NCBI RefSeq assembly: GCF_001304615.2
Contig: NZ_CP032683.1
Span: 620,001 to 684,000 of the forward strand
Length of the DNA: 64,000 bases
Origin: Methanosarcina flavescens
GTDB lineage: Archaea > Halobacteriota > Methanosarcinia > Methanosarcinales > Methanosarcinaceae
Reading direction: 5' to 3'
Position numbers and translations under genes: made by a program. The notes beneath the pieces are model-generated. The model ran no database searches, was not told the DNA's origin, and worked only from the letters and a program-made list of their open reading frames with translations. Below are positions 16,127 to 29,110 of this stretch, one piece after another (positions within the stretch are counted from its first letter, which is position 1; each line of letters starts with the position of its first letter).

Positions 16127-16410
16127 TGGAAAAACCCATCCCGCAAGTAAGAGTGCGGTCTTCGTACCAGCGCACAGGCTCGGTTCCGCAGGCTGCAGCT
16201 ATGGTATCTATTAACTGGGGATTTTCAGGGTGTCCGAGGACATCGAGATACTTAACTTTATAGTAATGGCAGGCATGGTGGGCTGCAGCTTTGGTACCTG
16301 AGAAGTCGAATTTCTTCTGCTTCTTGATCTAGTTGACTTTGCTTAAGAGAATCTCTACTGCATGGTAGAAGTTAGTCCTCAGGTTCATGTCATCTTTTTC
16401 GTAAACAAGA
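16127..16410 (-). pseudogene. Copied internal fragment of hdrB
   Basis: This 284-bp stretch matches bases 18191-18474 inside the intact hdrB gene downstream, in the same orientation, with about 15 mismatches by eye. It covers the middle of the protein (KDDMNPRTNFYH to the region around LTCGMGF). It lacks both ends, has no start, and carries an in-frame TAG where the parent has GAA (VNEIK). It is a dead partial duplicate rather than a gene. It lies just left of a MITE and of a second pseudogene, so the 16.1-17.6 kb stretch is a decay zone. Confidence 0.88.
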
Positions 16411-16525
16411 AATCCATATGGAAATATTGGAGAATATACAAATAAAAGATATATATCCAGATTCATCAAATGGATTAAAGGTCTGTTATTCTAATCCAAA
16501 ATTTTACATCTAATCCAGATTTTTC

Positions 16526-16648
16526 GGCTCTGTAGAAAACCTATCTAAATAAGTATTATGGGGCTGAAACCAACTATGGAAAATATAGATCATAAGGTTC
16601 AGTTCAAATTAATGTAGATTTGTTATTCCACAGGTTTTCTACAGAGCC
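16526..16648. mobile_element. MITE (123 bp) with 8-bp target duplication
   Basis: The terminal inverted repeats GGCTCTGTAGAAAACCT and AGGTTTTCTACAGAGCC bound a 123-bp non-coding element. The flanks are a perfect direct duplication GATTTTTC (16518-16525 and 16649-16656). The same termini with a different 8-bp duplication occur at 28751-29014. An 8-bp duplication and GG...CTGT ends are reminiscent of IS6- or IS1595-type elements, which may mobilise it; no transposase is in the window. Confidence 0.85.
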
Positions 16649-16732
16649 GATTTTTCCTCAAGTTTTACTGAATTGCTATCAAAACTCAAAAATTCTCGTT
16701 CTCTTAGATTCTAGCTCTATCTCATTTAGATT

Positions 16733-17900: not shown

Positions 17901-18845
17901 TCAGATTATCCCGTGTTTTTCCAGGAATTCCTCAAGAGGCACTGAATGAGTCTGGAAGCCGCATACTTTGTAGGGGTCAGCACCCATTGAAAGAGCTACG
18001 AACTGGGCAATATTCATGTGAACCATATCATACTTTACGTCAAACTCTTCCTCAATAACAGGCTGGTAGCGGTCATACTGGATATGGCAGTTCGGGCACA
18101 TATGAATCATAAGTTCCACACCTGCTTTCTGGAGGCTATCGAGTTTTGTCTTTGTCACCTGAAGCGAGGTGTCTTTGTTGAGGTGGAGCTGGGAAAAACC
18201 CATCCCGCAAGTAAGAGTGCGGTCTTCATACCAGCGCACAGACTCGGCTCCGCAGGCTGAAGCTATGGTATCTATTAACTGGGGATTCTCAGAGTTTCCG
18301 AGGACATCGAGATACTTAACTTTATAGTAATGGCAGGCATGGTGGGCTGCAGCTTTGGTCCCTGAGAAGTCGAATTTCTTCTGCTTCTTGATTTCGTTGA
18401 CTTTGCTTAAGAGAATCTCTACTGCATGGTAGAAGTTTGTCCTCGGGTTCATATCGTCTTTTTCGTAAACAAGATTTTCAAGGCCATGTTCCCTGAAGAT
18501 AGAGTTAACTTTCTCCCGTATCTCGGTATTGGTGTTAAGAACTTCACATGCCTCCTTGTTTATGGCATAACAGGTTGAACAGAGGCAGGTTATATTGGGA
18601 TAGCCGCATCTTCTTGCGACTGCGAAGTTCCGGGCTGCAATGGCTGTTGTTGTCAGTCCCTCAAAGATGTCAGTATAATGTCCTATTCCTGTGCAGCAGG
18701 ACTGCTCATCGTTAATACTGTAACCTACTCCAAGCCTGTCAAACACGTAACAGGTTGAGGTCTCCACTCCTGGATACTCCTGCCCGACCATGCAGCTTTT
18801 AAATAGTAAAAGCTGGCTGTCCGGGATATTCTCTATCGCTTTCAA
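17901..18845 (-). CDS. hdrB: Heterodisulfide reductase subunit B (soluble type)
   Basis: Catalytic subunit that handles the CoM-S-S-CoB heterodisulfide at a special [4Fe-4S] site formed by CCG domains, in the cytosolic HdrABC complex. The 314 residues contain two cysteine-rich regions. The first has KSCMVG, QSCCTGIGHY and CLCSTCY. The second has HHACHYYK, LTCGMGF and MCPNCHIQY. In the second domain the usual double cysteine is read here as Thr-Cys (LTCG). The start lies 47 nt inside hdrC, so the two are translationally coupled. It is last in the minus-strand operon hdrA-hdrC-hdrB. A 284-bp piece of it is duplicated at 16127-16410. The paralog assignment (the HdrA2B2C2 type of Methanosarcina) is an inference. 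Confidence 0.9.
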   Translation of the reverse strand: MKAIENIPDSQLLLFKSCMVGQEYPGVETSTCYVFDRLGVGYSINDEQSCCTGIGHYTDIFEGLTTTAIAARNFAVARRCGYPNITCLCSTCYAINKEACEVLNTNTEIREKVNSIFREHGLENLVYEKDDMNPRTNFYHAVEILLSKVNEIKKQKKFDFSGTKAAAHHACHYYKVKYLDVLGNSENPQLIDTIASACGAESVRWYEDRTLTCGMGFSQLHLNKDTSLQVTKTKLDSLQKAGVELMIHMCPNCHIQYDRYQPVIEEEFDVKYDMVHMNIAQFVALSMGADPYKVCGFQTHSVPLEEFLEKHGII

Positions 18846-25597: not shown

Positions 25598-27022
25598 TTA
25601 TCTCTTTGCCAGGCATTGCCGGTACATTGTCTCAAGCTCTACAAGGTCGTTTATCGGTGTCGGGATCACCCGCGAGTCATTTTTCATAATCGCTTTTGCG
25701 AGGTCCCGGAAGATTTCTGCTTCCTCTGAAACAGGCTCAGGATACCGTTATATCCGAAGTATTCCCGGTTGATCATCCTGAACTGTCGCACCATCCTGAC
25801 TACCTCAACTACATAGGCAACAGAAAGCCCTTCACTTGCGTGCCTTTCGATAGTACTGCCGAACACGACCTGTGGACTGACCTTCTGGAGATTCTTCCGT
25901 GTTTTATACATGTCTGTTCCATACACGACCTCAGGATTAAGCCTGAGGTTTTTAAGTTCCTTCTCCAGCAATTCCCGTACTGGTCGTTGTGAAGTATAGA
26001 GAGCAATGAGTTCTGGAGTCATCTCCATCTCCTCGGTGATAAAACGAACCAGTGGAATCCCTATTGTAGCATCGGAAACAATTGCTGCCGGGGTTCGGTA
26101 TAGGAATTTTGCCATTGGCCATTTGCGCCTGCATGTCGCCATTATCATACGTTCGCTTTCAACAACCATCTCTTCCGCCATTTTCATCAAATCGAATCTC
26201 TCTCCTAAAGCGGTCAGCCAGCGTTCTGTGTTTGTCATCCCTATAGGCAGGGGTATCCCTTTACAGACCTGCTCTATGCCATATGCTGCAGAAAGGTAAT
26301 CCGCTGCTTTTTGCCCGGCATCATGACTCAAAAGGAGGGACATTTCGGCGGACGCAATATTCTCGACCTCAGCAATTGGGGTTTGGTGTGTGAGCGTGGC
26401 TACAACCTTAATGCCCATCTGGGAGAGAACCTGTTTTACCCACGCGAGGTCTGCTGGCCATGTAGGATTGGCATTTGCGTGAGGAGGGACAAGACAAACC
26501 GAATTCGGGACTTTCTCAACGTCATCTTTTACCAGATTCTTCAGGATTGTATCCAGCGCGATGTCGATGCCATCATACTGACCCCCTAAATCCGGCGCAT
26601 TCAATAGGGACGAGCCTGAACTTTACTTCTGGTTGCAAGGACTCACACACCCCCACGATATCATCTCCAATTATCTCAGGGCCACATGCACTGAGTACAA
26701 ACAGGGCTGAGATCGGCAGATCCTTTGCCTCCCGGATAGTGAGGGCAAGTATAAGTATATCCTCTCCACCATGTACGATCTCGTCCACACATAGCTTCGT
26801 ACATAGGGTCATCGTCTCCATGTAGTCGCATTCCTGTGAGGCAAAAGCATTGTCGACAAGGTACTCGCATCCTTGAGGAGAATGGGCTAACAAGGAAGAA
26901 TTAGATATACCAAGTGCCGTGAGGGCAGCGCCATTGAAAGCACAGCGGAGGTAAGGGTCAGTACAGGCCTCCGAAGATGAAGCCGACGGCACAACTTGTT
27001 CCTTATTTGGTTTTTGTTCCAT
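25598..27022 (-). pseudogene. Nitrogenase component 1-like beta (NifK/NifN-type) gene, frameshifted
   Basis: Reconstructed length is about 475 codons. ATG at 27022 begins MEQKPNKEQ and overlaps the end of the alpha-like gene. The first segment has HSPQGCEYL and SACGPEIIGDD (P-cluster-type cysteines) and ends at CAGFRG. There a run of five G (26582-26586) shifts the frame. Deleting one G restores GFRGQYDGIDIALDTIL. The frame then holds for about 290 codons to YNGILSLFQ, near 25712. There a second shift leads to EEAEIFRDLAKAIM and the true end LAKR at 25598. The sequence is nitrogenase-like, not dark-operative or CfbC/D length. With two lesions it is a pseudogene unless these are sequencing errors. 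Confidence 0.85.
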
Positions 27023-28427
27023 AGAGCATCCCCTTAAATAAGCGTGAACGTGGGAGGTCTTTGTTTTCAAGGGCCTGCCTGACGAGAGCTGCAATATTCT
27101 TTATTCCTCTGAAACCATACTGGGCTGGAATGCTGGGTTCATTAGTGTTAAGTTTACTACCGGACAGGGAGGGAACCTACCGGAATTCCCGAAAAATATG
27201 GGATTATCATATCCTTTTACAATTTCTTCGAGTTCGTCTTCGGTCTCTTTTGATGACTGAAAACTTCCCAGACTGAAGAGCCCCTTTGTCAGAATGATTT
27301 CAGGATAAACCCCGGTTTCCAGAAGAAACTTGATGCTGGGCATACGTTCCTTGATAGTATATGGTGGACGTTAATTACGACAGGATGGGCTCCAAAATCT
27401 GCCGCCATGCGTGCAAGGGAAAGAGCTCGTATTGGCCCTGGGAACTCTGATATCTCTACAACAGCTGTTTTCCCGGAAAGAGCCTTTCTTAGATATTGAA
27501 TTTCCGATTCCACTCCCTTTATTTCTTGTTCAATTACCTTAACGGCTTCAGCTTCCATTCCAAGAGATGTTGCCACTCCGAGCAGCCATTCCTTTGTGGC
27601 TTCGGGCCCATATGGCTGTCCGGTTTTGCTATATGGAATACCGAACCGTTCCTGCATCAGGTCGCCTAACTTCTGTCCCCAATCAAAGCACCACAAGGTG
27701 TTCAGTTCAACCTCTCTAGCATGCTTTATTTGCTCGACAGTGCATCCTCCAGCTATGATGGCATTAATCTTTATTCCGACTTCACCAAGGAGTCGCTCGA
27801 TTTCATCCATGTCCCAGTTGAACTCTGTGGGGGTAGGATCCCAACGGGCTCCAAGGATGTTAATCGTTCCTTTCATCTTTGTTTCAGGAGGCTCCATCAG
27901 ATCCATAATGAGCTTGAAAGCATCCTCATAACCGCTTCGGAAATCCCCACCGAATCCTTCGCTGCGGAGCGCCAGCACCCGGCAACCAACCAGCTTCTCT
28001 GCCTCACGGGCAATGCTTTCAACGTCGTCACCGATGATCCCTGAGCAGCAGCAAGAGAGGATAACAATGAGGTCTGGGTGATACTTATTGTATGCTTCCT
28101 TACTGCTTCCAGAAGTTATCCCTCACCCCCATAAATAATGTTGCTTTCATCAAGAGCTGTGCAGGCTGTGGGTTCGAGAGGAACCCCACGGATCTCACAG
28201 CACTCCCGCGTCCTGACAGAGTCCGACATGTACAGCGGACATCCAGTCGGACCGTGGACAAGAGGAACAACATGACGAATCCCACTGATGACATAATATG
28301 AAGTAAAAAATTTACACATGGGAGCGTGCGAAGCCTGCAGTTTGGGAATCATCTCACCCGTTTCTACTTTTTTCAATAACTGCTGCAGGTCACCATGAAA
28401 AACTATGAAATTGTTCTCCGGATTCAC
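27003..28427 (-). pseudogene. Nitrogenase component 1-like alpha (NifD/NifE-type) gene, nonsense and frameshifts
   Basis: About 475 codons from GTG at 28427. The N-terminus has VPLVHGPTGCPLY and TALDESNIIYGGEG. A TAA (28116-28118) then replaces a probable lysine codon. Within 20 bp one base is missing, and the frame resumes as KEAYNKYHPDLIVILSCCCSGIIGDDVES. The long middle part (FGGDFRSGYEDAFKL, ILGARWDPTPTEF) runs to VHH near 27365. There two extra bases shift it to TIKERMPSIKF. A further shift near 27145 leads from PVVNLT to NEPSIPAQYGFRGIKN and the true end GTKTK. At least four lesions mark decay. It is upstream of, and overlaps, the beta-like gene. No NifH-type reductase gene is adjacent. 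Confidence 0.87.
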
Positions 28428-28750
28428 ACATTCTCAATTATTGTATGGGGATAAATGTTTCTCCAAATTTTATCGGTTACAAGGAGGAATAGGAATCTAA
28501 TACCTTAGAGGTAGCCAGCTAGGAGCCTCTCGAGCCAGCCATGCCATTATAAATTGGCAGCTAATAGGGCCGACCGGTCCACTCAAAAACATCTGAACGT
28601 TGAAAAGAGGCGGTATTCTGGTTAAATTTTCAGTTATTATCCCCCCTTTACAATAAAGAGCCACACATCCAGAGAATAACAAAAAAGAGAATAATGAAAG
28701 AGAATAATAAGAGAGAATAATAAAAGAGAGTAATAAAAGAGAGTAATAAG
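28428..28750. other. Intergenic; tRNA-Ala 3'-end repeat and GAATAATA-type microrepeats
   Basis: No gene is supported. It holds the right copy of the 14-bp repeat and, from about 28681, a run of AGAGAATAATAA / AGAGAGTAATAAA words that ends exactly at the MITE insertion point and resumes after it. Confidence 0.5.
28570..28583 (+). repeat. Direct repeat of the tRNA-Ala 3' end, right copy (possible att site)
   Basis: Exact 14-bp copy of 24736-24749 in the same orientation, about 3.8 kb away on the far side of the nitrogenase-like pseudogenes. The flanking bases are not otherwise tRNA-like. Confidence 0.5.
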
Positions 28751-29014
28751 GGCTCTGTAGAAATCCTTAATTTAATCCATAATAATTCTATTACTTTTTT
28801 GTTTATATTATAGACTATTAGTGGCTCTGTAAAAATCCTTAATTTAATCCATAATAATTCTATTACTTTTTTGTTTATATTATAGACTATTAGTGGCTCT
28901 GTAGAAATCCTCTGAAATAACCAATCTTAACAAATTAAAACTGAATTGCCTGATTCAATTTTGCTGAGAACTTTAAGTCTATTAATGACGATTAAGTAGG
29001 TTTTCTACAGAGCC
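28751..29014. mobile_element. MITE (264 bp) with 8-bp target duplication and internal 72-bp tandem repeat
   Basis: It begins GGCTCTGTAGAAA and ends TTTTCTACAGAGCC, the same termini as the element at 16526. It is flanked by a perfect GTAATAAG duplication (28743-28750 and 29015-29022). The left terminus is repeated. A 72-bp unit starting with GGCTCTGTA occurs at 28751-28822 and 28823-28894 with one mismatch, and a third start is at 28895. The element is non-coding. Confidence 0.85.
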
Positions 29015-29110
29015 GTAATAAGAGAGAATAATAAAAGGGAGTAGAAGATTATTAGGACATTCTCTGAAGCAAATACCATCTATGCACAATAATATAAAGC
29101 TACTATAAAC

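What the first reader, a model, noticed from the sequence alone, without database searches (positions are those of the whole stretch)
16526..16648. New MITE family, copy 1, perfect 8-bp target duplication
The termini GGCTCTGTAGAAA...TTTCTACAGAGCC flank 123 bp of non-coding DNA, with GATTTTTC duplicated on both sides. The same termini occur at 28751. The perfect duplication implies a fairly recent insertion by a transposase that makes 8-bp staggered cuts.
Basis: seen in the sequence. Interest (0 to 1): 0.5.

Follow-up and report, generated by a model that had tools for sequence, protein, structure and literature searches.

The report
Archaeal mini-transposon driven by an IS
A 123-base non-coding mini-transposon in a methane-producing archaeon has most likely been copied around the chromosome by the enzyme of a larger jumping gene with the same ends; this is an ordinary kind of mobile DNA, with the mildly unusual twist that it sometimes fuses with that jumping gene and moves as one piece.

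Summary
Window 16526-16648 is a 123-bp non-coding element with perfect 13-bp inverted ends and a perfect 8-bp duplication, GATTTTTC. It also holds 26 near-complete MITEs of several subfamilies; 17 of the 21 stand-alone copies have perfect 8-bp duplications. MITE and IS share only their tips.

The site at 28751 is not a simple second copy. It is a 264-bp composite: two tandem 72-bp pieces of the IS right end fused to a MITE of another subfamily, the whole flanked by GTAATAAG. Two identical 281-bp MITE-spacer-IS-end composites sit at two other sites with different perfect duplications. One transposase therefore evidently pairs an IS end with a MITE end.

The MITE interior recurs in 26 of 30 Methanosarcina genomes searched and in a neighbouring genus, so the lineage is old. 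Archaeal MITEs that share only their tips with their IS are already described; this is a new member of that kind.

The parts
16526..16648 (+). MITE copy 1, subfamily a, 123 bp
16526..16538 (+). left terminal inverted repeat, 13 bp perfect
16636..16648 (-). right terminal inverted repeat, 13 bp perfect
16518..16525 (.). target duplication GATTTTTC, left
16649..16656 (.). target duplication GATTTTTC, right
28751..29014 (+). 264-bp IS-MITE composite
28751..28822 (-). IS right-end piece (IS 937-1008), first copy
   Evidence: 99% to the IS
28823..28894 (-). IS right-end piece (IS 937-1008), tandem second copy with one changed base in the end
   Evidence: 97% to the IS
28895..29014 (+). MITE of subfamily b, 120 bp; six other copies in the genome are identical
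28743..28750 (.). target duplication GTAATAAG of the composite, left
29015..29022 (.). target duplication GTAATAAG of the composite, right

Best explanation
Copy 1 is a non-autonomous miniature inverted-repeat element (MITE) moved in trans by the transposase of an IS5-family insertion sequence that is numerous in the same genome. The transposase recognises the shared tips, joins them to an 8-bp staggered cut in A+T-rich target DNA, and gap repair gives the 8-bp duplication. Shown in sequence: shared tips, same duplication length, transposase genes mostly without in-frame stops, near-identical copies at different sites, and composite units bounded by one IS end and one MITE end with their own perfect duplications. 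Inferred: that this enzyme is the one at work (no assay), and that composites such as 28751-29014 arose when a MITE landed in or beside an IS and the transposase then paired the outer MITE end with the IS right end.
For: 21 full-length IS copies, 99-100% identical to the reference copy, perfect 8-bp duplications in 15 of 21 IS, 17 of 21 stand-alone MITEs and 3 of 5 composites (a degenerate 136-bp MITE left out). Transposase 313 aa: NF033579 IS5 family 226 bits against a cut-off of 140, PF01609; 20 of the 21 full-length matches in G000 have no stop in the matched stretch. MITE tips equal IS tips for 13 bp, one end of subfamily b for 21 of 22. Composites: two identical 281-bp units at two sites with different perfect duplications, and the 264-bp unit in the window; a similar IS-MITE unit with AAATTATC on both sides in another genome (L230 1908-3102). 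Seven identical subfamily-b MITEs.
Against: No transposition assay and no clean empty site. MITE and IS share only tips, so the MITE interior does not come from this IS, and its own autonomous ancestor was not found. 4 of 21 MITEs, 6 of 21 IS and 2 of 5 composites lack a matching duplication. Several genomes hold MITEs without any transposase match of this kind, e.g. G021, G023, G024, G027, G029, so other drivers must have acted there or the driver was lost.
Confidence: 0.92

Rival explanations
1. A different transposase, not the IS found here, moves the MITE; the shared tips reflect common ancestry only.
For: The interiors of MITE and IS are unrelated (inner-profile control: IS left -3.0 bits, IS right no hit), and some genomes have MITEs but no match to this transposase.
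Against: Composites bounded by one IS end and one MITE end with perfect duplications need one enzyme that takes both; duplication length is the same. PF13610 (IS6-type) has no match in the genome.
Confidence: 0.05
2. Composites arose by recombination, deletion or slippage between neighbouring elements, not by transposase pairing an IS end with a MITE end.
For: 2 of 5 composites in G000 lack a matching duplication; the tandem 72-bp pieces at 28751 and 28823 look like a tandem duplication; an IS and a MITE do stand side by side at 2192582-2193717 with CTATATTT before, between and after.
Against: Deletion may well form the junction, but the identical 281-bp units at two sites with different duplications, and GTAATAAG round the 264-bp unit, show that the fused units were inserted as wholes.
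Confidence: 0.15
3. The repeat is mainly a conserved regulatory or RNA element kept by selection.
For: Steady length (56 of 60 copies fetched from other genomes measure 118-124 bp, ends sought near the match boundaries), a core recognisable in a neighbouring genus, and a possible left-arm hairpin paired in 163 of 217 cells against 12-40% for slid versions.
Against: No Rfam match at the element in six loci searched; the consensus fold gave zero energy on both strands (uninformative); the hairpin was read off the consensus, so its excess is partly built in, and many changes break it. Scattered sites with fresh duplications are what a transposon gives.
Confidence: 0.04

Closest known systems
Archaeal MITEs with IS partners, including Methanosarcina (Kamoun et al. 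2013, PMC3852290; section 16 read, other passages seen)
   Same: Short non-coding elements, multicopy, whose borders alone (mostly under 20 nt) match an autonomous IS; three Methanosarcina rows have IS5-family partners.
   Different: No row of its Table 4 combines about 120 bp, an IS5-family partner and 8-bp repeats; the IS5 rows for Methanosarcina are 147, 140 and 252 bp with repeats of 0, 3 and 0. The table gives no sequences, so identity could not be tested. Table 4 lists only the new MITEs; the 26 earlier ones are not in it.
ISH1 subgroup of the IS5 family (one member, ISTth7, tabulated in PMC6352166; passages seen)
   Same: IS5 family, 900-1150 bp, 8-bp repeats, one ORF; the driver here has 1004-1008 bp, 8 bp, one ORF.
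   Different: Subgroup placement by tree was not done; sequence not compared.
TIMEs, Tn3-derived miniature elements that build mosaic transposons (PMC4133298; abstract and section list seen)
   Same: Miniature elements whose ends bound larger composite units that move as wholes.
   Different: Tn3-family 38-bp ends, 5- or 6-bp duplications, bacteria, shown by experiment; here IS5-family tips, 8 bp, archaea, and one partner end belongs to the IS itself.

Membership tests
MITE | short, non-coding, terminal inverted repeats | tested here: met
   123 bp, 13-bp perfect ends, no plausible gene
MITE | multicopy with target duplications | tested here: met
   26 near-complete copies in G000; 17 of 21 stand-alone copies with perfect 8-bp duplications
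MITE | autonomous partner with matching ends | tested here: met
   IS of 1004-1008 bp, 21 copies
MITE | mobilised in trans | not testable with these tools
   no assay; composites are indirect evidence
IS5 family (driver) | family transposase above curated cut-off | tested here: met
   NF033579 226.2 bits, cut-off 140
IS5 family (driver) | Y-x2-R-x3-E-x6-K signature (motif recalled) | tested here: met
   YNRRNIVETIISVVK at residue 250
ISH1 subgroup of IS5 | 8-bp duplication, 900-1150 bp, one ORF | tested here: met
   compared with one tabulated member
ISH1 subgroup of IS5 | placement in the subgroup by phylogeny | not tested
   no ISfinder sequences at hand
IS6 family (considered because similar ends and 8-bp duplications are recalled for it) | DDE_Tnp_IS240 transposase, PF13610 | tested here: not met
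   0 matches in G000; the same search gave matches in 5 of 14 control genomes

The most novel reading that the evidence does not exclude
A single MITE lineage, older than the genus, has outlived successive IS5-family drivers while keeping its own core and a length near 120 bp, and works as an exchangeable end module: by nesting in or beside an IS it gives that IS a new end, and the transposase then moves IS-MITE chimeras as units.
Probability: 0.35. Interest if true: 0.45.

Novelty: new member of a known kind. Interest (0 to 1): 0.28.

Why it matters
Parasite and driver sit in one genome with fresh duplications, so trans-mobilisation of an archaeal MITE could be tested directly in Methanosarcina, which is genetically tractable (recalled). 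The composites show in natural sequence how a miniature element and an IS can trade ends. The spread of one MITE core through the genus, in genomes where matches to this transposase are often partial, broken or missing, bears on how non-autonomous elements persist when their drivers decay.

Tried and rejected
IS6-family driver: rejected, no PF13610 match in the genome.

Autonomous parent carrying the MITE core: 20 places where one search had matched only part of the MITE were fetched. The profile search showed 10 to be near-full diverged MITEs, 2 to be split or patchy, and 8 to keep one arm. For those 8 no partner end (up to 2 mismatches) lay within 2.5 kb inward; their ORFs were printed but not identified by a family search. 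Two of the 8 pairs are shared sites (below). Among the 30 transposase loci L140-L169, the MITE profile matched the IS ends only at the tips, about 17-24 bp, and up to 33 bp weakly in L149. No parent found.

Empty sites: joined flanks of both window copies were searched in 30 genomes. Copy 1: the left flank matches a gene fragment found elsewhere, and no listed match outside G000 spans the junction. Copy 2: homology in G028 begins at window 29023, just after the duplication, but the left flank is not conserved there; the only listed matches across the junction are short, 69-86% hits to the AATAA-rich repeat. No clean empty site.

RNA function: Rfam at E up to 1 on six loci gave one sub-threshold match outside the element. 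RNAalifold gave zero energy on both strands, uninformative. The left-arm hairpin is not convincing.

Rows dropped or not seen: a degenerate 136-bp copy (2385327-2385462, flanks differing at 3 of 8) is left out of the 21 stand-alone MITEs; fragments at 2076247, 1380574, 3260153 and 447802 were left out. One search listed 100 of 117 end matches. Of the MITE matches outside G000, 60 were fetched with flanks and aligned. Lists were cut. One search scored at most 7 candidates per genome in most genomes.

Prior description: searches. No listing showed this element, but sequences and ISfinder could not be searched, and a review of archaeal insertion sequences sought by id is not held.

Full report
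WHAT WAS CHECKED. The element at window 16526-16648 has the stated termini, GGCTCTGTAGAAA and its reverse complement, and GATTTTTC on both sides. The window is 620001-684000 of a 3,283,688-bp single-contig genome, G000. Of 29 titled loci that encode a relative of its IS transposase, 28 are labelled Methanosarcina, so the host is taken to be a Methanosarcina; its size is close to that recalled for M. flavescens, which was not verified. The 13-bp end is well above chance in the window (8 sites, shuffled mean 1.89) and in the genome (117 sites with up to one mismatch, 8 for the control).

THE DRIVER. Many ends come in pairs about 1008 bp apart. These bound an insertion sequence: 21 full-length copies of 1004-1008 bp, 99-100% identical to the reference copy. 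The reference (L051 501-1508) has one long ORF of 313 aa, a match to NF033579, IS5 family transposase (226.2 bits, cut-off 140), and to PF01609, with a Y-x2-R-x3-E-x6-K signature (motif recalled). In one search, 20 of the 21 full-length matches in G000 have no stop in the matched stretch. Perfect 8-bp duplications flank 15 of 21. An ISH1-subgroup member of the IS5 family is tabulated with 900-1150 bp, 8-bp repeats and one ORF (PMC6352166, passages seen), which fits. An IS6-type driver was tested and not found.

THE MITES. G000 holds 26 near-complete MITEs of 120-123 bp: 21 alone and 5 inside composites. Of the 21, 17 have perfect 8-bp duplications (one degenerate 136-bp copy left out). Copy 1 is in subfamily a with two other copies, 98% identical to it. 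Subfamily b has 16 copies, seven of them identical, the window's among them. The 35 perfect duplications of IS, MITEs and composites, 34 distinct, are strongly A+T rich at positions 2-7 with more G or C at the outer positions. At the tips, 13 bases are common to IS and MITEs; copy 1 matches the IS at 16 of 17 at both ends (by reading), and one end of subfamily b matches the IS left end at 21 of 22. The interiors do not match.

THE SITE AT 28751. It is a composite: two tandem 72-bp pieces of the IS right end (IS 937-1008), the second with a changed base in its tip, directly joined to a subfamily-b MITE, with GTAATAAG on both outer sides. Four more composites occur in G000. Those at 754941 and 1042854 are identical over 281 bp and have different perfect duplications, so the unit MITE-spacer-IS end moved as a whole. 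Those at 832622 and 2511245 lack a matching duplication (2 and 6 mismatches). In all five the IS piece runs to the IS right terminus. In genome G013 a decayed IS (leftmost match at IS position 371) has a MITE about where its left end should be, and AAATTATC lies on both sides of the whole (L230 1908-3102); that the MITE replaced the IS left end is inferred. At genome 2192582-2193717 an IS and a MITE stand in tandem with CTATATTT before, between and after them, as if one had inserted into the duplication beside the other.

HOW IT WORKS. The best reading is trans-mobilisation: the IS transposase takes the shared tips and inserts with an 8-bp stagger. That one IS end and one MITE end can bound a unit with its own duplication is the strongest evidence that one enzyme handles both. 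The route to a composite is inferred: a MITE lands in or beside an IS, and its outer end is then paired with the IS right end; deletion may form some junctions. The second 72-bp piece may be a later tandem duplication.

AGE AND SPREAD. With copy 1 as query, 26 of 30 Methanosarcina genomes, G000 included, match; exact ends at MITE spacing occur in 6 of 30. Sixty matches from other genomes were fetched and aligned with 25 from G000; they fall into 44 clusters at 90% identity, at least six of which visibly span more than one genome. Of the 60, 56 measure 118-124 bp, with ends sought near the match boundaries. Two truncated insertions are shared between species in conserved flanks (L239 and L242, 86% over 2089 bp; L233 and L245, 95% over 2589 bp). 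With a consensus query 67 of 111 genomes of the family match, in 10 of 14 genera, but many of these matches are weak. Seven elements outside the genus were tested without their terminal 20 bp: three of genus g5 (66.2, 63.8, 56.7 bits) and one of g7 (42.3 bits) keep the core, 0 of 500 shuffles each; two are weak (8.0 and 7.2 bits, 0 of 500); one is not distinguishable (1.5 bits, 4 of 500). The g7 genome concerned has 5% estimated contamination. Transposase matches occur in 23 of 30 genomes; besides G000 and G028, full-length matches without stops were listed only in G017, G003 and G019, and most other listed rows are partial or carry stops. So the MITE core is older than the present IS burst and is not a shortened form of this IS; its own autonomous ancestor was not found.

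COMPARISON. Kamoun et al. 2013 (PMC3852290, section 16 read) describe archaeal MITEs, several from Methanosarcina and some with IS5-family partners, that share only borders with their IS. This element is of that kind; none of the rows of their Table 4 has its combination of size, partner family and repeat length. Mosaic units built by miniature elements are known for TIMEs (PMC4133298, abstract). A 2024 review of prokaryotic MITEs does not name Methanosarcina (PMC10969869, term search). No listing of this element was found in the searches named in Tried and rejected; ISfinder could not be consulted.

VERDICT. Observation confirmed; interpretation supported with corrections; a new member of a known kind, with natural IS-MITE composites and an old, widely spread MITE core as the points of mild interest.

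Noticed in passing
G000 156766-157772 and 212665-213672: Two IS copies with unmatched flanks that match each other reciprocally (GTTTTTTG/CATTTTTC and CAAAAAAC/GAAAAATG), as expected after inversion of the 56 kb between them.
   Followed up: partly
G000 1304746-1305753 and 1366888-1367895: A second candidate inversion pair: left flanks are exact reverse complements, right flanks agree only if shifted by one base.
   Followed up: partly
window 16128-16410 and 18192-18474: The left flank of copy 1 holds a 95% identical duplicate of a piece of the gene at 17901-18845 (looks like a heterodisulfide-reductase B-type protein, name recalled).
   Followed up: partly
L051 580-1521: The transposase ORF has no stop inside the IS (which ends at 1508); the stop is supplied by the flanking target DNA.
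   Followed up: no
L234 2000-2230: In genome G005 one MITE end is expanded into about eight tandem 15-bp repeats of the terminal sequence.
   Followed up: no
L255 620-1326: A 67% identical transposase piece on a 3-kb contig labelled Candidatus Cloacimonadota; misbinning is as likely as transfer.
   Followed up: no
window 25684-28427, minus strand: Neighbouring ORFs that look like nitrogenase-type component proteins but are split into several pieces (names from reading, no family search).
   Followed up: no
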